Origin: Gemmata massiliana
GTDB taxonomy: Bacteria > Planctomycetota > Planctomycetia > Gemmatales > Gemmataceae
Assembly: GCF_901538265.1 (NCBI RefSeq)
Contig: NZ_LR593886.1
Location: 8,019,738-8,083,737, forward strand
Direction of reading: 5' to 3'
Length of the DNA: 64,000 nt
The notes beneath the pieces are model-generated. The model was not told the origin of the DNA and did no database searches. It saw only the letters and a program-made list of their open reading frames with translations. Numbering within the stretch: position 1 is the first letter of the stretch; each line of letters starts with the position of its first letter. Positions 36,739 through 55,675 of this stretch are shown here, piece after piece. The translations under genes were made by a program, and so were the position numbers.

Positions 36739-36947
36739 ATCGTCGGAGGGGTGAGGGGATTTCCGGCGGGCGGGATGGGGCTACAATATCTTGAGAATGC
36801 GGCATGCGTCAAGATATTGAAACGGCCGATTCCCCGGTCTTCTTCCATCGCACGCAGTGACATCCGCGTGCCCGATTGCCATCGTCGTCCGGGACGGGGT
36901 GGCCCCAGTGAGATAATTTAGACGCACCAAGAACGGACGGAGGGCGT

Positions 36948-37437
36948 ATGTGTGTTGCGAACCGTCCGCTGTGTCGAGGCCCTGTCACTCTTCCGACCCA
37001 TTCGGTTCCCGTAACCGCGGTGCCCGAGGCGGTTCTCCTCGAACGGTTCGCGGCCGGAGACGAGGCCACCCTGGGCGACCTGTTCCGGCGGTACCGGATG
37101 GTGGCGTATCGGGTCGCTTATCGATTGCTCGGGCACGAAGCCGACGCCCTTGATGCCGTTCAGGACGGGTTCGTGAACGCGCTCCGGAACCTCGATCAGT
37201 TCCGGGGACAAAGTTCGTTCAAGACATGGCTCCTGCGGGTCGTCAGCAACGCCGCTTTTGACCTCGGTCGGCGCCGGAAACGTAACTCCCGGGTTTCAAA
37301 CGAACACATCGACCATCCGCTCGATCAGTTGAGGGCGTCGGAACTGCCGGCAGACGTTCGTTCTGCACACCGAAGGGGAGCTCTCGTACCAGGAGATCAC
37401 CGACGCCCTCAACATCTCGATCGGAACCGTAATGATA
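36948..37437 (+). pseudogene. ECF sigma-70 factor gene, frameshifted and cut by an IS
   Basis: ATG 36948 follows GGAGG and opens a sigma factor. Region 2 is clear: ERFAAGDEATLGDLFRRYRM, LLGHEADALDAVQDGFVNAL and QFRGQSSFKTWLLRVVSNAA. At about 37356 the frame breaks, and region 4 continues in another frame as FVLHTEGELSYQEITDALNI followed by SIGTV. The sequence then runs into the left end of an IS630-type element at about 37438, before the end of the DNA-binding helix. Homologues continue with a short basic tail that is absent. The gene is inactive by frameshift and truncation. Confidence 0.75.
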
Positions 37438-37455
37438 CCGAATCGTTTTGAAAGA

Positions 37456-37837
37456 TTACCATTCCAACCCGACAGCCCAGCGGAACCCAACCCTGGGCCG
37501 CACTTCTTCGGGGTACTCGGCGAGGTCGTCCCAGCGGTCGCGGACGATGCCCGTAGGCGGTCGATGCGGCCGAGCGAGCGGTTCGCCACGGCCTCGCGAA
37601 CCAGGGGCCACAGGGGCTCGGCGGGTTGTAACTCCGGGGTACACGGGGGCACGAAGTGGAGCACCATGTTGGGCGGCACCACCAGGGCCCGGGCCGTGTG
37701 CCAGCCCACGTTGTCCACCAGTACCACCGTTGTTCCCCTCCGGGCCCGCGCGACGCGCGAGCGCTTCGAGCGCCTCGGACGTGCGCTCGGCCTTCACCCG
37801 GGGTAGCAGGACGCCGAACGTGTGGCCCGTCTTGGGG
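37456..37837 (-). pseudogene. IS630 transposase, C-terminal part
   Basis: Read leftward from the target duplication, the fragment has PKTGHTFGVLLPRVKAERTS, then, after a frameshift, VLVDNVGWHTARALVVPPNM and PPCTPELQPAEPLWPLVREA. After another frameshift it ends WDDLAEYPEEVRPRVGF and a stop at 37456. The DNxxxH and PELQPAEPLW blocks are the second Asp and final Glu regions of the DDE_3 fold. PKTG at its start continues the N-terminal part at 39503-40190 once the ISKra4-type element is removed. Confidence 0.75.
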
Positions 37838-39502
37838 GGGGGTAGGACCGGGTTTGCGCGCGTGGGGCCGGGCTACAACGGTGGGTAGCAAATCACTCCC
37901 GATGTTCGCCCGAAGTGCAAGGCCGGCCGGCCGATGGCGAAGCACAAACTGACGCCCGAGCAACTGGCGGGCGTGAAGGAACTCGCCAAACAGTGGGGCA
38001 AAATCGTTGCCCGACGAGCCTATGGCGAGGGTGGCCCCGACCTCGGTGTGGACTTCGACCAGATGGAGCAGATCAGCGCCGCCGCCAGCGCCGGGTTGGT
38101 CGAAGGCACGCTCGAACAACTCACCCGCACCCAGGCTCAAAAGCTCCCCGACGAGTTGCCCCGTCCTACCTGCCACAAGGTCCGCCCGGTCCAAACGCGA
38201 CCGCGTGACGTCGTCGCACGAGGGGCCACGGTTACGCTCCAAGAACCCGTGGCCCACTGCCCCGCCTGCCGCCGGGACTTTTTCCCCCCAACGGACCAAC
38301 CTCAGACTTGATGCCCACGGGTACAGTCCCTCGGTGCTCGCCAAGATCGTCCACGCCGGGGCCGTGCTCCCATCGTTCGAGCTGGCTTCCAAGACGCTCG
38401 GACTTCTGGCCGACATCTCGATCAGCGGGCGCCACGTCGGGCGACTGACCGAAGCAATCGGGGCCGAGTTGGTTGCCGCACGCGACGCACGCACCGAAGC
38501 TCACCGGCTCCGCACACTCAAGCCCCAGGTTCCGAACGTACCGGGCGTGGTGGCCGTCGAGGTCGATGGGGGCCGCTACCAGCGCCGCGCCGAGGGGCAC
38601 GAGACCCGCATTGGCGCGAGGACAAGGTCGCGTGCCTGGTCACGCTCACCAGCGCGACGCACGACACCGCCCCCCAGCCGGAACCACCCGCGTGCTTCCT
38701 CGACCGCAAGCACGTCGCCAACATGACGACGTGCTCGACCGCTTGCGAGCTCACAATGCCAAGCAAATCCTCCGGACCGGAGGTCGCGCCCGAGTCCAAA
38801 CCCGATGCGATCGCTTGGCAACCCGAGCGCGGGGTGCGGACGTGCGTAGCAACGACACGCGACAGCGAAGCGTTTGGCCGGTTGGTCGGTGCGGAAGCCC
38901 AAGCGCGGAACTTCGGGTCCGCCCGCCGTCGTGCGTTCGTGGGTGACGGCCAGGCGTACAACTGGGCGATCCGGGCGCGGTGGTTCGGTGAGTACGTGGC
39001 GGTCGTGGACTTCATCCACGTGTTGGGTTACGTGTGGCAAGCGACGCGCGCGACCGGGGGCACCGATGTCGAGCAGTGGGACCGATACGCGCGTTGGATG
39101 CGCGGTTGCTGGCAGGGGCGCGCGTCGGAAGCCCTCGTGGAGATGAATCGCGAGCAGCGGCGCATCGGTGAGGCACCGGAAGGCGCAGAGGACACGGACC
39201 CGCGGGTGCTGCTGGGGCGCGCGCGGTTACTTGCGGAACAACGCGGACCGGGTGAAGTACCCGGAGTACCGCAAGGCGGGCCTTCCGGTGACCAGTTCGT
39301 GGGTGGAGTCGCTGATCAAGGAGATCAACTACCGGGTCAAGGGCACCGAGAAGTTCTGGAACGAGCACGGGGCCGAGAGTGTGCTGGCCGTCCGAGCCGC
39401 CGTGCTCAGCGACGACGAACGGCTCACCAAGCACCTCGCGGCTCGACCCGGTTCCCCATTCCAGCGCCGAACCGCTGCCTGATTACAAAACCAGTCCTAC
39501 AC
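37838..39502 (+). mobile_element. ISKra4-family insertion sequence nested in the IS630 element
   Basis: The left end carries GTAGGACCGGGTTTG (37842-37856) and the right end its inverted match GTAGGACTGGTTTTG (complement of 39486-39500), 13 of 15 bases identical. The flanks share the 12-base sequence CCCGTCTTGGGG at 37826-37837 and 39503-39514, consistent with a target-site duplication. Deleting the element and one copy restores the IS630 transposase reading PKTGHTF. The element is about 1.66 kb and encodes one degraded transposase on the plus strand. Confidence 0.78.
37934..39482 (+). pseudogene. ISKra4-family transposase with several frameshifts
   Basis: The start MAKHKLTPEQLAGVKELAKQ lies in frame one, which runs through the zinc-binding HCPACRRDFFP to a stop at 38311. 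The next frame reads YSPSVLAKIVHAGAVLPSFE, LADISISGRHVGRLTEAIGA and VVAVEVDGGRYQRRAEG. The third reads RRAFVGDGQAYNWAIRARWF and EYVAVVDFIHVLGYVWQAT. The fourth reads YRKAGLPVTSSWVESLIKEI and NYRVKGTEKFWNEHGAESVL, ending at TGA 39482. The DGGR, DFIHVLGY and SSWVESLIKE blocks are typical of ISKra4 transposases. Three frameshifts, near 38290, 38650 and 39230, inactivate it. Confidence 0.78.
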
Positions 39503-40190
39503 CCCGTCTTGGGGCGCACGAACCCGTACTGGTACACCCACTGATAACGGGTCCGACCGCACGACCGCGGGCGCCGGCCCTTGGGCGACCACGTCCGGCG
39601 GGTGCCCGGCTTGAGCCCCAGCCGGGCCTCGTCCTGGGCCCACACCTCCACCTTCCCCGGGTTCGCCTTCCGCAACCGCCTCAGCCGCGCGCGCGAGTTT
39701 TTTTCCACCGCGTCCGGGTCGGTGGATCGGCCGCCTTGGGGTGGCTGGGCCAAGGCACCTGAGGGGTGAACCCGAGGTCCACCAGCCACGTCCAGCCGGT
39801 CTGCGGGCAGATCTCGATATTCCAGGTGGCGCGCACGTACCGGACCACCTTGGGCCCGCTCCACAACCCGCCGTCGGGCGGGCGCTTCTTTAGAGCCGCC
39901 AACAACCGGCCCCGTTGAGCGTCGGTGAGCTTGGATTCGGAGCCGTTGTTCTTGCGCCCGTCGGTCAGCCCGTCGGGGCCGCTCTGGTTCCACCGCTTGA
40001 GGACGTCGCGGGTGGTGATGACCGACAACCCCACGAGGTCGCCCACCTGGGCCGGGGTGCGGACCGGATCGGTTCGGAGTAGCAGCCAGATGGCGTGCCA
40101 GCGCACCTTCTCGATCGGGTGCCCGCACGCCCGGTACTGGGCTCCGGCCCGTTCGGCGCTCAGGTGCCGCACCACCGGTAAACGCTTCAT
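39503..40190 (-). pseudogene. IS630 transposase, N-terminal part
   Basis: ATG 40190 starts MKRLPVVRHLSAERAGAQYR and runs through helix-turn-helix segments (PAQVGDLVGLSVITTRDVLK, TDAQRGRLLAALKKRPPDGG) to GWTWLVDLGFTPQVPWPSHP. A frameshift near 39740 follows. The next frame reads RRLRKANPGKVEVWAQDEAR and LGLKPGTRRTWSPKG, the first catalytic Asp region. It stops being IS630 at the ISKra4 insertion after FVRPKTG. Both the frameshift and the insertion make it non-functional. Confidence 0.75.
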
Positions 40191-40245
40191 CGCCTTCCCC
40201 CCACAGCGGATTAATCACTATGGTAGGGATTCATAAGGATTCGGT

Positions 40246-41063
40246 TATAAGGCGGGTCGGGTGGCCAGATCGCGAACCGGGTGCGGTACGGGTGCCCCTT
40301 GCGGTTCGAGTGGAACGGGTCGGCTTCGATCCCGACCAGCGCCCGGAGTCGGGCGCGCAGGATGCCGACCTTCTGCTTCAGTCCGCCCGGTTTGGTGCCG
40401 ACCGCGTCCCCGGTGCCCAGCACCCCGCGGAACCGAGCCAACAGTCCAAGCAATCCCCACATGTCGTCTGGCGCGCCCTTCGCGCGGCGGTCCGCGAACC
40501 CGGCCCCGGCGAACCCGAACCGCTCCAGAACCGTGCCGATTTGGGCGCGGACATGGTGCTCCTCGACGACCAGCGCGCCCTGCTCCCAAGTGGCGTTCAA
40601 CGGAGTCGGGAACGCGCGCGTTGCTTCCTGCGTGCTCGGCCGTGTGTCGACGGGCGGTGCCGAAGTGAGGAACTCGCGGTCGGCGGTTAAGTTGGTCGGG
40701 CCGAGGTGCAGCAGGTCGGTGAGCGAAACCACGATCGGTGCGCGGTCGGCCGACCACACAGCCACGGATGGAGTCGACGCGGGCACGAACGCGCTCGTGT
40801 TCGCGGCCCGCAACTCGGGCACCGATTCGACCACCGCGGCGCCGTCGGCGCGCGTCAGCCCGGCCGCGAGGAACCCGACCCACAGGCGCCGCCGGCGCGG
40901 ATCGTGCCGAGTTTCCAGACCCGGCCGGGAGCGCGCTCGGTCGTGCCCCCGGTCGCACCGAGCGCCGTTCCCACCGTGCCCGCGAGCGCGGGCAACCGAA
41001 CCGCCCAGCGGCGCTGTGCGGCAGGGTCGACCGGAACGATGCCGACGTGCGGACACGGGACCG
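40246..41063 (-). pseudogene. Unrecognised protein gene, frameshifted and cut at its 3' end by the IS630 element
   Basis: The minus strand reads coding-like sequence in two frames: CPHVGIVPVDPAAQRRWAVR and TTERAPGRVWKLGTIRAGG. After a frameshift near 40890 it continues RRLWVGFLAAGLTRADGAAV, FVPASTPSVAVWSADRAPIV and ARLRALVGIEADPFHS. It reaches FAIWPPDPP exactly at the right end of the IS630 element. The C-terminal stretch rich in Arg and Leu could be a DNA-binding helix. I do not recognise a named family. Third positions are G/C-rich as in real genes. The frameshift and truncation make it a remnant. Confidence 0.5.
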
Positions 41064-41370
41064 TGGAAACCCGGACCCGGGCCGGGCGCCGGCGCGTCGG
41101 GGTGAGCGCGTTCGCGGAGAAGCTGAACACGCCCGTGCCGGGCACCGGGACCGACGGGCTCAAGCGCGCCCTGTTGTGGGACCGGGGCGGCACATGCCCG
41201 GGTGCGTTCCCGGTGCTCCTCGTGTACGAGATCTTGGTCGTGTGCGACGCGACCCAGCAGAACGAAGTCGCGGCGCGCGTGCGGGGTGCGGTGGTGAACG
41301 GGATGGCCCCGCTCATCGATCCGGTCCCCGTCGAAGTCGAAGTGAAAATCGGGGCCACCTGGGCCGGGCG
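41063..41370 (+). pseudogene. DNA polymerase I (family A) C-terminal fragment
   Basis: The plus strand encodes GRRRVGVSAFAEKLNTPVPG, TGTDGLKRALLWDRGGTCPG, AFPVLLVYEILVVCDATQQN and PVPVEVEVKIGATWAG. This aligns with the last palm segment of family A polymerases, where one expects NTPxQGTGADGLK and the catalytic VHDE motif. Here the latter reads VYEI, so the second catalytic Asp and adjacent residues are lost. The upstream two-thirds of the gene is missing and the end runs out after WAG. Family A polymerase genes of this kind often travel on phage or integrative elements. It is a decayed scrap. Confidence 0.6.
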
Positions 41371-43761: not shown

Positions 43762-44240
43762 ATGGACGTGGTGATGCGCCCGGTCGGGGCGGTCAAGCCG
43801 TACGAGAACAACCCGCGCTCCAACGACGCGGCGGTCATCGCTGTTGTTGCCTCGATCCGCGCGTTCGGGTGGAGGCCGCCCGTTGTCGTGGACGAGTGCG
43901 ACGTGATCGTCGTGGGTCACACCCGGTTCAAGGCCGCGCTCGAACTCGGCATGACCGAGGTGCCGGTGCATGTGGCACGCGGGCTCACGCCCGACCAGGC
44001 CCGCGCGTACCGCCTCGCGGGCAACCAAACGGCCACGCTCGCGACCTGGGACAACGACCGGCTCGCACACGAGCTCGCGGCCCTGTAGCACGCCGACTTC
44101 GACCTGTGCTCACCGGGTTCCCCGAGGACGAACTGCTCCGGCACCGCACCGCCCACCGAACCCACCGGCGACCCCGACGACGTGACCGAACCAACTGAAC
44201 CGGCCGCCACGTTCGACCCGTCGGCGCCGCGGCGAGCTGA
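43762..44240 (+). pseudogene. ParB-like nuclease domain gene, broken after the N-terminal domain
   Basis: ATG 43762 opens PVGAVKPYENNPRSNDAAVI, AFGWRPPVVVDECDVIVVGH and TRFKAALELGMTEVPVHVAR, the ParB N-terminal nuclease-like domain. It continues to RLAGNQTATLATWDNDRLAH. A TAG at 44086-44088 falls where AALQ is expected. Past it, HADFDL and, in another frame, LTGFPEDELL continue the family pattern of phage-type ParB-methyltransferase proteins. The methylase part is absent. A 108-residue ParB domain could still be made. The location beside a dead recombinase fits a decayed phage or integrative element. Confidence 0.65.
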
Positions 44241-44806
44241 CAACTGACGAAGTAAGTGCGCTCCTCGCCGCAGCGCGTGCAAGTACAGTTTTGCTGTTCG
44301 GGTTGGGTGGTGAAGAACCCATCCTCCTTTACCGACTCGCGCTGGCGACCGGGTTGTGAGCCGCAGAACTGGGCGCCCTTCTGCCCGAACACTTCGATTT
44401 GGCCGCGACACCGCCGTTGGTCGCGCTCCCCCCGGAACTAACGAAAAACCGTAAGGGCGCAATCCAACCCATTCCCGAAGAACTCATTGCAGACCTTCGC
44501 ACGTTCATCGACGGCCGACCGGCGAAGAATCCGGTCTGGCCCGGTCGGTGGTCGAAAAAGGCTGCCGAAATGCTTCGTGCCGACCTTGATGCGGGCGGTG
44601 TACTGCGGACCCGGGGGGGCCGAAACACGCGGCTTCCATCCTCTGCGGGCGTGTTACATCTCGAACGTAATCTGCGCCGGCGCGGACCTAAAACAAGTTA
44701 TGACTCTGGCACGCCACTCGGACCCGCGGCTTACGGCGTCGAGGCACGCCCGAACGCGGTTGCACGACCTCGGGACGGTCGTCAACAAACTGCCCGGTAA
44801 TGTCAT
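44230..44806 (+). pseudogene. Tyrosine recombinase (integrase) catalytic-domain remnant
   Basis: From 44237 the frame reads LTTDEVSALLAAARAST and RLALATGL, then a TGA at 44357-44359, then AAELGALLPEHFDLAATPP. In tyrosine recombinases the motif is TGLRxxEL, and the Arg is catalytic; a CGA to TGA change would give exactly this. The frame then shifts near 44610, and the second part has GFHPLRACYISNVICAGADL and LARHSDPRLTASRHARTRLH. The H-x-x-R box remains, but the catalytic Tyr expected in RYAHTRLHDL reads His. The frame stays open past 44806 into sequence antisense to tRNA-Cys. The enzyme is dead in at least three ways. Confidence 0.75.
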
Positions 44807-45012
44807 ATTGACCCAACACACACGTTTGCTGAGTCGCACGGGAACCGGCAGCGGGGACGCTCCCGATGTACCAGCTGGCGGTAAAGCACAGGGGCAATCG
44901 AAGACAGATGACCAAACAGCCAATTATCGCACTTCGGTAATAATAACGACCAAACCCCTGGTTTCCCAGGGGTTTGAAGGTTACCGAGAACCGGCGGAGA
45001 CAACTGAAAAAG

Positions 45013-45083
45013 AGGCCTCGCCCGGATTTGAACCGGGGATGACGGTTTTGCAAACCGTTGCCTTACCACTTGGCGACGAGGCC
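45013..45083 (-). tRNA. tRNA-Cys (anticodon GCA)
   Basis: Read on the minus strand from 45083, the 71-base sequence folds as a cloverleaf. The acceptor stem is GGCCTCG with CGAGGCC. The D arm is GCCAAGTGGTAAGGC, the anticodon stem ACGGT/ACCGT encloses loop TTGCAAA with anticodon GCA, and the T arm is CCCGGTTCAAATCCGGG. CCA is not encoded. The dead recombinase gene ends facing the 3' end of this tRNA, the usual attachment position for integrative elements. I found no second copy of the tRNA 3' end in the window. Confidence 0.93.
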
Positions 45084-45653
45084 ATCGATCAACAATTTCA
45101 AGGCTTTTTGCGTTCCTCGCGTCGAATTCCTACCGAGGTTTGCAACCGTTGTGGGAATCACCAATCACACCCACGTGTTGGGCGACGTATGGAGGATTCT
45201 ACCGGTTCGCGCTCGCCTCGAAAAGTCCCCAACCAACCGAAGAAGCCCTATCCCGATTTTCCGCTCACACCTCACCCAGAGGGGCTGGCAAAAATCCGGG
45301 CCGCATTTACTATTTCGGCAAATGGGGGCGGCGGGTTAACGGGAAAATGCAACGTGCCCTCCTTCACTTATTGCACGAGTCGAGTTCGTCTCTCATTTGG
45401 CCGAGGTTCCGGCAAGTCATCTCCGTCTGGCGACGAGGCACTCGGCAACGGTTCGGTGACAGTGCGTGCCGGACGACAAGGGCGGCGTTCGTTGAGAACC
45501 GCGAAGGTGGTTCGCAGCAACGGCGGCCAGAATCTTTGGGAGCCGTTCGCATTTCGAGCGTGTGACTTGATCCCAATGATCCAGAAAAAACGAGCCGCGC
45601 CGCGGTTCGCTGTAAAACGTTTCTGACGCAGACATTCTCCCGGGGATCGCACG
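45084..45653. other. Stretch of 570 bases without a supported gene
   Basis: It lies between tRNA-Cys and the SulP-carbonic anhydrase gene. The first part must hold the tRNA promoter on the minus strand, and the last part the promoter of the transporter. Open frames crossing it (for example from 45140) lack family resemblance and have poor codon character. I see no RNA gene or repeat. Confidence 0.45.
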
Positions 45654-47930
45654 ATGACATCGACGAACGGGCCGACGGGTGCCCCGCTCCCCGCCGGTGG
45701 CGCCGCACTCCCGCGCGACCTGGCAGCCGGGCTGGTCGTGTTCCTGGTGGCACTGCCCCTGTGCCTGGGGGTCGCGCTGGCATCCAACGCGCCGCTCTTT
45801 GCGGGCGTGGTGGCGGGTGTCGTCGGTGGGATTCTGGTCGGCGTGTTGAGCGGATCGCACACGAGCGTGAGCGGCCCGGCCGCGGGGCTGACCGCCGTGG
45901 TCGGCGCGCAGCTCGTCGCGCTGGGGTCGTTCCCGGCGTTCCTGATGGCCCTGGTTCTCGCGGGCCTGATCCAGATCGTTTTGGGGATTGTGCGCGGGGG
46001 GTTCATTGCCGCGTTCTTCCCGTCGAGCGTTATCAAGGGCCTGCTGGCCGCGATCGGCGTCATCCTCATTCTGAAACAGATCCCGCACGTCGTGGGGCAC
46101 GACGCGGACCCAGAAGGGGACATGGCGTTCCAGCAACCGGACGAGCAGAGCACGTTCTCCGAACTGGTCGAGGTGCTCGGCGACTTGCACCCCGGCGCGG
46201 CCGTCATCGGCGTACTCTCGATCGCTCTGTTGGTGGTCTGGGGGCGGTGGAAGGTGCTCAAGACGTCGCTGGTGCCCGCGCCGCTGGTCGTGGTCCTCCT
46301 GGGGGTGGGGCTGAGCTTCGTGTTCCGGGAACTGGGCGGCTCGTGGGCGATCGGATCAAGCCACCTCGTCCAGGTACCGGTCGCGGGCAGCGCGGCCGAG
46401 TTCTTCGGGTTCCTTCAGGCGCCGGATTTCGCGCGGCTGGCGCGCCCCGCAGTTTACACGGCGGCCCTGACGCTGGCCGCGGTCGCGTCGCTGGAGACGC
46501 TGCTGAACCTGGAAGCGGTGGACAAACTCGACCCGCGCCGGCGCGTGTCTCCGCCGAACCGGGAACTGATGGCCCAGGGCGCCGGGAACGTGGTGTGCGG
46601 GCTGCTCGGCGGGCTGCCGGTCACTTCGGTCATCGTCCGCAGTTCGGTCAACATCCACGCGGGTGGGCGGACGAAACGGGCGACGGTAGTTCACGGACTT
46701 TTGCTCCTGGGTAGCGTCGCGCTCCTGGCGCCGTGGTTGAACCTGATCCCGCTGTCGTGCCTGGCGGCGATTCTCCTGGTCACCGGGATCAAGCTCGCGA
46801 GTCCGGCCCTCGTGCGCCGGATGTGGGCCGAGGGCCGGGCGCAGTTCCTCCCGTTCGTGACAACGGTGATCGCCATCGTCTTCACCGACCTGCTCGTCGG
46901 CGTCCTGATCGGGCTGGCCGTCAGTGCCGCGTTCATTCTGTGGAGCAACGCGCGGCGCCCGATCCGCGTCATCACGGAGCGGCACCTGAGCGGAGAGGTG
47001 GTCCGCGTCGAACTGGCGAACCAGGTGAGCTTCCTGAACCGCGCGGCGCTGGCGGACGTCCTCGACGCGGTGCCGGCCGGCGGGCACGTCCTGCTAGACG
47101 CGACCGGGACCGACTACATCGACCCGGACGTCCTCGAACTGCTCCGCGAGTTCGCCGAGCAGACGGGTCCGGCCCGGGGCGTGTCGGTCAGCAGGGTCGG
47201 GTTCCGGAGCCGCTACCGGCTCGCGGACCAGACCCAGTTCGTCGACTACTCGACCCGCGAGTTGCAAGCGGCCATGACCCCCGAGCAGGTGGTCCAGGTT
47301 CTCAAGGACGGGCACGAGCGGTTCCGGACGGGCCAGCGCCTGACCCGGGACTTGGGGCGCCAGGTGGAGGCGACCGCCGCCGGGCAGCACCCGCTCGCCG
47401 TGGTCCTCAGTTGCATCGACTCGCGCACCCCGGCGGAGCTGATTTTCGACCTGGGGGTGGGGGACGTGTTCAGCGTCCGCGTAGCGGGTAACGTGACCAG
47501 TCGGAAGATTTTGGGGAGCATCGAGTACGGGTGCGCCGTGGCCGGGGCGAAGCTGATCGTGGTGATGGGGCACACCCGGTGCGGGGCGGTGGGCGCGGCC
47601 GTGGACCTCGTGTGCTCGGCCCAAACTGCGGCCGAGGCCACGGGGTGCCAGCACCTGGACCACGTCATCACCGCCATCCAGCGCTCGGTCGATCCGCACG
47701 TGTGCCACAGGGTCGAGCGCATGGCTCCGGCCGAGAAACAGGCGTTCGTGAACACGGTGGCCCGGGAAAACGTGCGCCGGTCGGTCGCGGACCTGCTCGG
47801 GCAGAGCGAGACGCTCGCGGGCCTTGTGAAACAGGGGCGGATCATGGTCGCGGGGGCGCTGTACGATGTGGCCACGGGCGGGATCGAGTTCCTGTCGGGC
47901 GCCAGTAGTGAACCGCTGCACGCGGAGTGA
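45654..47930 (+). CDS. SulP-family anion/bicarbonate transporter fused to STAS and beta-carbonic anhydrase
   Basis: The 758-residue protein has three parts. Residues 15-430 are a SulP transporter with about ten membrane helices, including LPLCLGVALASNAPLFAGVV, SGSHTSVSGPAAGLTAVVGA and VASLETLLNLEAVDKLDP. Residues 440-535 are a STAS-like domain (VRVELANQVSFLNRAALADV, HVLLDATGTDYIDPDVLELL). Residues 550-750 are a beta-class carbonic anhydrase with zinc-ligand motifs CIDSRTPAEL and GHTRCGAVGAAVD. The arrangement suggests coupled bicarbonate transport and CO2 interconversion at the membrane. SulP-carbonic anhydrase fusions are known in several bacteria. It is the first intact gene right of tRNA-Cys. 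Confidence 0.92.
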   Translation: MTSTNGPTGAPLPAGGAALPRDLAAGLVVFLVALPLCLGVALASNAPLFAGVVAGVVGGILVGVLSGSHTSVSGPAAGLTAVVGAQLVALGSFPAFLMALVLAGLIQIVLGIVRGGFIAAFFPSSVIKGLLAAIGVILILKQIPHVVGHDADPEGDMAFQQPDEQSTFSELVEVLGDLHPGAAVIGVLSIALLVVWGRWKVLKTSLVPAPLVVVLLGVGLSFVFRELGGSWAIGSSHLVQVPVAGSAAEFFGFLQAPDFARLARPAVYTAALTLAAVASLETLLNLEAVDKLDPRRRVSPPNRELMAQGAGNVVCGLLGGLPVTSVIVRSSVNIHAGGRTKRATVVHGLLLLGSVALLAPWLNLIPLSCLAAILLVTGIKLASPALVRRMWAEGRAQFLPFVTTVIAIVFTDLLVGVLIGLAVSAAFILWSNARRPIRVITERHLSGEVVRVELANQVSFLNRAALADVLDAVPAGGHVLLDATGTDYIDPDVLELLREFAEQTGPARGVSVSRVGFRSRYRLADQTQFVDYSTRELQAAMTPEQVVQVLKDGHERFRTGQRLTRDLGRQVEATAAGQHPLAVVLSCIDSRTPAELIFDLGVGDVFSVRVAGNVTSRKILGSIEYGCAVAGAKLIVVMGHTRCGAVGAAVDLVCSAQTAAEATGCQHLDHVITAIQRSVDPHVCHRVERMAPAEKQAFVNTVARENVRRSVADLLGQSETLAGLVKQGRIMVAGALYDVATGGIEFLSGASSEPLHAE

Positions 47931-54316: not shown

Positions 54317-55675
54317 ATGCTCAGCATTCCCTTCGGTCGCGTTCGGATGTGCGACGGCATCTCCCGCCGGAACTTCCTGAAAGTCGGTGCCCTCTCCTTC
54401 GGTGCGATGAACCTCACGCTCGCGGACGTGCTTCGCGCGGAAGCCGCCGCCAAGAACCAAGACCCGTTCGGCCGCACGCGGCACAAGGCGATCATCAACA
54501 TCTTCCTCGGGGGCGGGCCACCGCACCAGGACATGTGGGAGATCAAGACGGAAGCGCCGAAGGAGATCCGCGGGGAATTTAAGCCGATCGCCACGAAGGT
54601 GAACGGCGTTCAGATCGGGGAGACGTTCACGCGCATCGCGTCAATGGCGGACAAGTTCGCGTTCGTGCGGTCGATCGTCGGCGCACGCGACGGGCACGAT
54701 GCGGTCCAGTGTACAACGGGCTTCCTCAAAGCGTCACTCGCCCCCCTGGGCGGCCGGCCGAGCATCGGTAGCGCTGTTGCGAAGCTCCAGGGGAGCGTCG
54801 ACCCGAGCGTTCCGCCGTTCGTCGGCCTCGCGGAGCGCACACAGCACGTGCCGTGGAGCGATTCGGGCCAAACCGGGTTCCTCGGGAACGCCTTCGAGCC
54901 GTTCAAGCCGAGCGGACCGGACATGGCGAACATGGTCCTCAACGCCACGAACAAAGATCACCTGCCGGACCGCAAGAAGCTCCTCGCCAGCTTCGACGAC
55001 ATGAAGCGAACCGTCGATCACGCCGGCGGACTTCGGGGTGCTGACGCCGCGACCGAACGAGCCTTCGACGTGCTCACCTCGAACCGCCTGGTCGAAGCGC
55101 TCGACATCTCGAAGGAGAGCCAGAAGACCCGCGACCGCTACGGTAGCGGCAAGCCGTACCAGTTCCAGTACGACGGCGCCCCGACGGTGAACGAGCACCT
55201 GCTCGTCGCCCGGCGCCTCGTCGAAGCCGGTGCCCGCGTGATCACGCTGAGCTACGGGCGCTGGGACAGCCACGGCCAGAACTTCAACCTCGTCCGCGAC
55301 CACGGCGGGAAGCTCGACCAGTGTCTTACGGCCCTCGTCGAAGACCTGGACGTGCGCGGGATGCTGAACGACACGACCGTGATCGCGTGGGGTGAGTTCG
55401 GGCGCACGCCGATGGTCAACAAGGAAGCGGGCCGCGACCACTGGCCGCAGGTGAGCTGCGCGATCCTGGCCGGCGGCGGGATGAAAATGGGGCAAGCGAT
55501 CGGCAGCACCGACCGCACCGGCGGTACCGCGAAGGACCGCCCCGTGGCGTTCGGCGACATCTTCGCCACGCTCTACCACAACATGGGGCTGAACGCGGAG
55601 ACCACGACGATCAACGACCCCACCGGGCGCCCGCAGTATCTGGCCGAAGGCAAGGTCATGCCGGAACTGGTATAG
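54317..55675 (+). CDS. DUF1501 domain protein with Tat-type leader
   Basis: ATG 54317 gives MLSIPFGRVRMCDGISRRNF, and the twin arginine with FLKVGALSFGAM forms an export signal. The 452-residue protein carries DUF1501 blocks: INIFLGGGPPHQDMWEIKTE, RSIVGARDGHDAVQCTTGFL, GARVITLSYGRWDSHGQNFN and IAWGEFGRTPMVNKEAGRDH. It differs clearly from the other DUF1501 copy at 28058-29347, so the two are diverged paralogues. No DUF1549 partner lies next to it. A hairpin terminator follows 30 bases after the stop. Confidence 0.85.
   Translation: MLSIPFGRVRMCDGISRRNFLKVGALSFGAMNLTLADVLRAEAAAKNQDPFGRTRHKAIINIFLGGGPPHQDMWEIKTEAPKEIRGEFKPIATKVNGVQIGETFTRIASMADKFAFVRSIVGARDGHDAVQCTTGFLKASLAPLGGRPSIGSAVAKLQGSVDPSVPPFVGLAERTQHVPWSDSGQTGFLGNAFEPFKPSGPDMANMVLNATNKDHLPDRKKLLASFDDMKRTVDHAGGLRGADAATERAFDVLTSNRLVEALDISKESQKTRDRYGSGKPYQFQYDGAPTVNEHLLVARRLVEAGARVITLSYGRWDSHGQNFNLVRDHGGKLDQCLTALVEDLDVRGMLNDTTVIAWGEFGRTPMVNKEAGRDHWPQVSCAILAGGGMKMGQAIGSTDRTGGTAKDRPVAFGDIFATLYHNMGLNAETTTINDPTGRPQYLAEGKVMPELV

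What the first reader, a model, noticed from the sequence alone, without database searches (positions are those of the whole stretch)
44230..45083. Dead tyrosine recombinase abutting tRNA-Cys: footprint of an integrated element
Seen: the recombinase motif TGLRxxEL has a TGA exactly at the catalytic Arg codon, the catalytic Tyr reads His, and the frame shifts once. The gene points at the 3' end of tRNA-Cys. Upstream are a broken ParB-like gene and a polA fragment. Known: integrases of this type sit beside the tRNA used as attachment site. Inference: a phage or conjugative element integrated at tRNA-Cys and has decayed; its outer boundary may be near 36.9 kb or 19.2 kb.
Basis: partly seen in the sequence, partly recalled or inferred. 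Interest (0 to 1): 0.52.

Follow-up and report, generated by a model that had tools for sequence, protein, structure and literature searches.

The report
Decayed mobile element beside tRNA-Cys
The broken gene beside the cysteine tRNA is probably the worn-out end of a virus-like element that once inserted into that tRNA gene; what looks like the displaced half of the tRNA lies 325 kb away, an ordinary kind of event, although this tRNA seems to have been struck from both sides.

Summary
Window 44225-44800 is the C-terminal half of a tyrosine integrase: TGA replaces the first catalytic Arg, the frame shifts once, the catalytic Tyr reads His, and residues 1-267 are missing. It points at the 3' end of the only tRNA-Cys found. 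polA and ParB remnants lie upstream.

The element reading is supported. An intact cousin sits in the same position at tRNA-Arg, with a copy of the tRNA 3' half 11.2 kb away. A 46-47-nt copy of its 3' half lies 325 kb to the left, same strand; its flank matches the tRNA-Cys 3' flank of a congener (60 nt, 87%), so it is probably the displaced original half. The only tRNA-Asn found lies between, so a rearrangement, not a giant island, probably separated them.

That family sits almost only at tRNA 5' ends and, in most cases tested, a copy of the tRNA 5' half marks the far end.

The finding is a known kind; the 5'-half family is the more interesting by-product.

The parts
45012..45083 (-). tRNA-Cys (GCA), the attachment gene; the only full tRNA-Cys found in the genome by DNA similarity
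   Evidence: ARAGORN, Rfam; own-genome DNA search finds one full copy and one 3'-half copy
44225..44599 (+). Integrase remnant, first segment (start of catalytic domain), TGA at 44357-44359 in place of the first catalytic Arg
   Evidence: 55% identity, E 1.8e-38, to the intact cousin L002
44607..44800 (+). Integrase remnant, second segment after the frame shift; HxxR and second His kept, Tyr codon reads His at 44745-44747
   Evidence: 82% identity over 62 aa to L002; the match to the cousin runs on to about 44990 at lower identity
44951..44976 (.). Hairpin followed by a T-rich run on the tRNA's strand: likely transcription terminator brought by the element
   Evidence: read; shown beside other 3' flanks; not tested as a terminator
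43762..44088 (+). N-terminal fragment of a ParB-like/DNA methyltransferase gene, broken, whose out-of-frame tail runs up to the integrase remnant
   Evidence: PHROG 620 E 1.4e-40; 56% to a ParB-methyltransferase in L054; frames
41096..41368 (+). C-terminal fragment of a phage-type DNA polymerase A
   Evidence: 49% to polA directly upstream of a family A integrase in L121; PHROG 17 E 0.0045; no Pfam hit
45189..45361 (+). N-terminal remnant of a second integrase (family C) starting about 105 nt from the tRNA 5' end and pointing away
   Evidence: 69% over 32 aa to C_L160, E 7e-12; counterpart in G009

Best explanation
An integrative element of phage or satellite type once inserted into the anticodon-loop region of tRNA-Cys. 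Its attP carried a copy of the tRNA 3' half with its own terminator, so the tRNA stayed whole, and the original 3' half was pushed to the far end of the element. The element then decayed: a deletion joined the front of its ParB/methyltransferase gene to the back of its integrase gene, which also took a stop, a frame shift and loss of the catalytic Tyr; polA is a stub. The displaced half is now at C1:7739980-7740025, 325 kb to the left, because chromosomal DNA was later moved in between. Shown: the remnant, its lesions, the cousin's geometry and repeat, the 3'-half copy and its flank match. Inferred: that this half belongs to this element, the order of events, the deletion and the rearrangement.
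For: Cousin at tRNA-Arg(CCT): same geometry, intact integrase, 49-nt 92% copy of the tRNA 3' half 11.2 kb away. Family A integrases: 23 of 27 distinct loci had a tRNA in the held flank, and all 23 point at its 3' end. Of 10 non-Cys cases, 4 have a 3'-half copy (tRNA position 26-29 to the end) 8.8-23.7 kb off; the only 3 control hits in 126 foreign pairs are Ser tRNAs on the Ser copies. The tRNA-Cys copy covers position 27 to just past the end, the same design. Its 3' flank matches the tRNA-Cys 3' flank of G009, 60 nt at 87%, the only such match among the 21 other flanks compared, and G009's 5' flank matches the window's right flank (282 nt, 87%). polA directly precedes an intact family A integrase in L121. 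18 of 53 integrase places in the genome lie within 1.5 kb of a tRNA; 2000 circular shifts gave a mean of 0.97 and at most 12.
Against: The two tRNA halves are 325 kb apart, so they do not bound a recognisable element. G009 is not a clean empty site: its own 3' flank carries a different, decayed family A integrase. No integrase match at E below 0.01 was found beside the displaced half. In 6 of the 10 non-Cys family A cases, and at G012's tRNA-Cys, no 3'-half copy was found within about 39-54 kb. An S10-peptidase gene that nothing ties to the element lies between the polA and ParB remnants, so the remnants are not contiguous. That tRNA-Asn is single rests on DNA similarity only; my extra pattern check failed.
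Confidence: 0.78

Rival explanations
1. The 3'-half copy at 7.74 Mb is the leftover of another element (for example one like that of G009), and the far end of the window's element has been lost.
For: G009's matching flank lies next to a different family A integrase remnant, so the shared flank could be that element's own arm; tRNA-Asn also has an orphan half 5.7 Mb away.
Against: It needs an extra insertion and a lost end. The copy has the extent and strand expected of the displaced half.
Confidence: 0.17
2. The whole 325-kb stretch between the tRNA and its half is one very large integrative island still in place.
For: Direct-repeat orientation is right; a 611-kb island is mentioned in PMC4383910 (passages read).
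Against: The stretch holds the only full tRNA-Asn found (a diverged second copy is not excluded) and a tRNA-Met; G+C (62.5-65.8% in 20-kb bins) and skew do not set it apart; it holds at least one tRNA-bounded element of its own.
Confidence: 0.04
3. The integrase piece lies beside tRNA-Cys by chance, carried in by transposition.
For: Transposase remnants crowd 36.9-41 kb.
Against: Position and direction are those of all 23 distinct family A loci that had a tRNA, and the same tRNA carries such integrase matter in 4 of the 25 other loci examined.
Confidence: 0.01

Closest known systems
Genomic islands in tRNA genes (Islander type, anticodon-centred site, 3' fragment displaced)
   Same: Tyrosine integrase beside a tRNA kept whole; a copy of the tRNA 3' half from the anticodon stem to the 3' end in the same genome
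   Different: Integrase dead, element eroded, and the half lies beyond Islander's 200-kb length filter with the only tRNA-Asn found in between
Intact 11.2-kb element at tRNA-Arg(CCT) of the same genome (about C1:7265157-7276412)
   Same: Integrase 55% and 82% identical in the two segments, pointing at the tRNA 3' end, hairpin between the two (read by eye), 3'-half repeat at the far end
   Different: Integrase intact; carries DUF3854 primase-like matter; no polA or ParB match was found in its held DNA
pTN3-like archaeal elements and the rare bacterial 5'-fragment islands (for the family C remnant on the 5' side)
   Same: The attachment site is the tRNA 5' half, so the element supplies the front of the tRNA (PMC8371274, passages)
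   Different: Family C is a bacterial clade; its integrase gene lies whole beside the tRNA 5' end and was not seen split by the site

Membership tests
tRNA-integrated genomic island | tyrosine integrase gene inside the element next to a tRNA | tested here: met
   remnant homologous to integrases whose match ends within 294 nt of a tRNA in all 23 distinct loci that had one
tRNA-integrated genomic island | displaced tRNA fragment, right side and orientation | tested here: met
   3' half, downstream side, same strand, at C1:7739980-7740025; that it belongs to this element is inferred
tRNA-integrated genomic island | interval between tRNA and fragment is the element (2-200 kb in Islander) | tested here: not met
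   325 kb with the only full tRNA-Asn found inside; so it is filed as a remnant, not as an intact island
tRNA-integrated genomic island | site free of this element in a relative | tested here: inconclusive
   G009 lacks this element but carries another decayed integrase there
Active tyrosine recombinase | catalytic R-K-H-R-H-Y set in one frame | tested here: not met
   first Arg is TGA, Tyr is His, frame shift, N-terminal half missing; the residue set is recalled
Prophage | structural genes | tested here: inconclusive
   only ParB-like and polA stubs recognised; I did not scan every window ORF
Conjugative element | relaxase and transfer genes | not tested
   no dedicated search was run
Family C, 5'-half tRNA integrases (5' side remnant) | gene starts near tRNA 5' end and points away | tested here: met
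   starts about 105 nt from the tRNA 5' end; 26 of 29 distinct genus loci had a tRNA, all 26 in this arrangement
Family C, 5'-half tRNA integrases (5' side remnant) | displaced copy of the tRNA 5' half | tested here: not met
   no copy of tRNA-Cys 1-34 with up to 3 mismatches in the genome; for other tRNAs 10 of 16 cases have one

The most novel reading that the evidence does not exclude
In Planctomycetia two integrase families divide the tRNA gene between them. Both cross over at the anticodon loop, but one carries the tRNA 3' half and the other the 5' half with its promoter, so one tRNA can host an element on each side and have both halves replaced in turn. tRNA-Cys of this genome is a decayed case of such double use, and its present 5' half and promoter may be of element origin.
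Probability: 0.5. Interest if true: 0.55.

Novelty: new member of a known kind. Interest (0 to 1): 0.33.

Why it matters
By itself the remnant is one more worn tRNA-inserted element. It led to two integrase clades with opposite, nearly fixed polarity on tRNA genes in planctomycetes. The 5'-half mode is described as seldom met in bacteria (PMC8371274, passages) and made up 159 of 3919 islands in Islander (PMC4383910, passages). A clade in which it seems to be the rule, with ten cases of a 38-41-nt copy, makes a direct test possible: does an element take over expression of an essential tRNA?

Tried and rejected
Rejected: boundaries at 36.9 or 19.2 kb (no tRNA-Cys copy within 100 kb left of the tRNA). 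Rejected: a 325-kb island (only tRNA-Asn found lies inside; composition flat). Rejected as stated: G009 as a clean empty site; a late search found its own integrase remnant, after I had noted G009 as simply pre-insertion. Large-scale synteny with G009 gave almost nothing (45 scattered reciprocal best hits between 502 and 278 ORFs), so gene order could not decide the history. A tblastx comparison gave only noise. A displaced 5' half of tRNA-Cys was sought and not found. Two pattern searches meant to count tRNA-Asn and tRNA-Cys genes were badly designed: the shortest gap allowed was too long, they missed the known tRNA-Asn and tRNA-Cys themselves, and so they say nothing; uniqueness of both tRNAs rests on DNA similarity. 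I changed two odds a little for that (best explanation 0.80 to 0.78, giant island 0.03 to 0.04).

In family C, L180 and L182 are one gene, leaving 29. Places without a fetched locus were not examined. In the shift test I entered 53 of the 59 listed integrase places, dropping six second or neighbouring pieces. In one search I used 26 of the 30 loci L011-L040 (left out: a second G013 copy and the partial matches of G007, G019, G021); flanks were 1.45 kb, shorter for G004 (3' side) and G003 (5' side), and only the best match per flank was kept. The tree used relatives chosen by similarity to A and C, so part of its clustering is built in; the own-genome rows were chosen by place.

Full report
What is there. 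The window is C1:8019738-8083737 of a 10.1-Mb single-contig genome; integrase hits to MAGs titled Gemmata, Fimbriiglobus and Singulisphaera suggest a Gemmata-like planctomycete, but the strain is not named. tRNA-Cys(GCA) lies on the minus strand at 45083->45012, and one full copy was found in the genome by DNA similarity. To its left, on the plus strand and pointing at its 3' end, are two segments of a tyrosine integrase in different frames. The first catalytic Arg codon is TGA (44357-44359), the Tyr codon is CAC (44745-44747), and the N-terminal 268 residues of the best cousin give no match in the window. Immediately upstream is the front part of a ParB-like gene (43762-44088), whose out-of-frame continuation runs up to the integrase segment, so an internal deletion has probably joined the two. 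A polA stub lies at 41096-41368, with an S10-type peptidase gene between it and the ParB remnant.

The cousin. Within the same genome the best match is an intact integrase at C1:7274721-7276421 that stands in the same relation to tRNA-Arg(CCT). A 49-nt copy (92%) of that tRNA from position 29 past its 3' end lies 11.2 kb away, so the cousin is a classical tRNA-inserted element; DUF3854 and weak primase matches suggest a satellite or phage-like replicon. In another Gemmata MAG (L121) polA, integrase and tRNA-Ser(GCT) follow one another directly, which ties the window's polA stub to the same kind of element.

The family. Relatives of the cousin (family A) were found in 15 of 19 genomes of the genus at E 1e-30 and at five named loci. 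Of 27 distinct loci examined, 23 had a tRNA in the held flank, and in all 23 the gene points at the tRNA 3' end, its match ending within 294 nt of it. Tested for the far end, 4 of 10 non-Cys cases have a copy of the tRNA 3' half starting at position 26-29, at 8.8 to 23.7 kb; of two tRNA-Cys cases (54 kb in G012 and 100 kb in the own genome) neither has one; the three control hits in 126 foreign pairs are all Ser tRNAs on the Ser copies.

The displaced half of tRNA-Cys. The similarity extends to 46-47 nt at 94%, tRNA position 27 to just past the 3' end, with no tRNA called there. Its 3' flank matches the 3' flank of tRNA-Cys in the congener G009 over 60 nt (87%), including the hairpin, and matches none of the other 20 flanks compared. 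G009's 5' flank in turn matches the window's right flank (87% of 282 nt). This is what is expected if the piece at 7.74 Mb is the original tRNA-Cys 3' half with its former terminator, pushed away when the element brought its own. One caution: G009 carries its own decayed family A integrase, of another subclade, further along that flank, so it shows the site without this element, not a virgin site. 3'-half pieces of tRNA-Cys also stand alone in G018, G007 and twice in G019.

Why 325 kb. The interval holds the only full tRNA-Asn found by DNA similarity (one search was meant to confirm this and failed) and a tRNA-Met, ordinary G+C and skew, and an element of its own at tRNA-Asn (3'-half copy 37 kb from the gene). 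I therefore take it as chromosome moved between the two ends. tRNA-Asn likewise has an orphan half at C1:2070698, 5.7 Mb from its gene. Which rearrangement occurred I cannot say.

The other side of the tRNA. At 45189-45361, starting about 105 nt from the tRNA 5' end and pointing away, is the N-terminal remnant of a second integrase: 69% over 32 aa to C_L160, E 7e-12. A profile of nine N-termini finds it and its G009 counterpart at 3.1e-5 and 4.3e-5, while none of 1080 shuffled frames reached E 0.5. It is shared with G009 and so is probably older than the window's family A element. Of 26 tRNA-Cys loci, 5 have family A matter on the 3' side and 2 have family C matter on the 5' side; no flank had the reverse as its best match, and no shuffled flank matched at 1e-3.

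Family C. In the genus, 26 of 29 distinct loci have a tRNA in the flank, all with the integrase starting at the tRNA 5' end and pointing away. In the class, 48 of 198 genomes searched have the family at E 1e-30, the genus included; of 24 further loci, all in other genera, 21 show this arrangement, one the integrase on the 3' side pointing away, two no tRNA. In 16 cases with about 19-50 kb of integrase-side DNA, 10 have a 97.5-100% copy of tRNA position 1 (or 2) to 38-41, at 12.7 to 38.8 kb; one (Arg-CCG, whose integrase did not match family C at 1e-30) has a whole tRNA copy, one an unclear match, four nothing. All nine control hits in 226 foreign pairs lie at or within about 50 bp of the places already counted. 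A tree of 46 integrases needs 4 changes of geometry (least possible 2; shuffled mean 19.8), with core clades of 19 (A), 7 (B, 3' side pointing away) and 16 (C) rows, each 100/99; five long-branched rows are unsure, and the relatives were picked by similarity. In the own genome 18 of 53 integrase places lie within 1.5 kb of a tRNA: 7 on the 3' side pointing away, 6 on the 5' side pointing away, 5 toward the 3' end, none toward the 5' end.

Known or new. Islander (PMC4383910, passages read) lists 3760 islands with a 3' and 159 with a 5' fragment. A survey of Sinorhizobium (PMC11476347, passages) reports 77 of 88 at the 3' and 9 at the 5' end. A review of archaeal integrases (PMC8371274, passages) calls the 5'-half site unique to pTN3-like elements among archaea and the resulting situation seldom met in bacteria. 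Searches on planctomycete or Gemmata integrases and tRNA sites (listings and starts of abstracts only) showed nothing on such a family; many journals are not held, and Williams 2002, the key survey, could not be read. The given finding is thus a new member of a known kind.

Noticed in passing
L155-L184 and L224-L247; example C1:3320889-3351751 (L112, L116): Integrase family C sits at tRNA 5' ends pointing away, and in 10 of 16 cases a copy of the tRNA 5' half (position 1 to 38-41) lies on the integrase side. tRNA-Thr(CGT) has two such copies in tandem, 16.0 and 30.7 kb off.
   Followed up: partly
C1:7276363-7276435, C1:5205778-5205864, C1:3957645-3957718; G012 tRNA-Arg(CCT) (L126, L157): tRNA genes that carry an integrase on both sides, one toward the 3' end and one leaving the 5' end.
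   Followed up: partly
C1:2070698-2070740 and C1:7782215-7782257: Two further 98% copies of the tRNA-Asn 3' half, one 5.7 Mb and one 37 kb from the only full tRNA-Asn found.
   Followed up: no
C1:5353800-5353873 and C1:5379299-5379372: Whole tRNA-Arg(CCG) duplicated (96%) 25.4 kb apart with an integrase, not of family C proper, at one inner end.
   Followed up: no
L054:10270-14588 and L055:9509-9552 (G019): Two copies of a tRNA-Cys 3' half, about 42 kb apart if the contig is circular; one is followed by another type of integrase and a ParB-methyltransferase 56% identical to the window's ParB stub.
   Followed up: partly
window 36918-41056 and C1:7741261-7742406: Transposase remnants; by eye similar DDE transposase pieces (window 37296-37727 and C1:7742128-7742406) lie in opposite directions near the two tRNA-Cys halves and could have mediated rearrangement.
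   Followed up: no
window 54752-54829: ARAGORN calls tRNA-Pro(AGG) inside an ORF; Rfam does not, so it is probably false.
   Followed up: no
window 45654-47930: Sulfate-permease-family transporter fused to a carbonic anhydrase domain, next to the tRNA.
   Followed up: no
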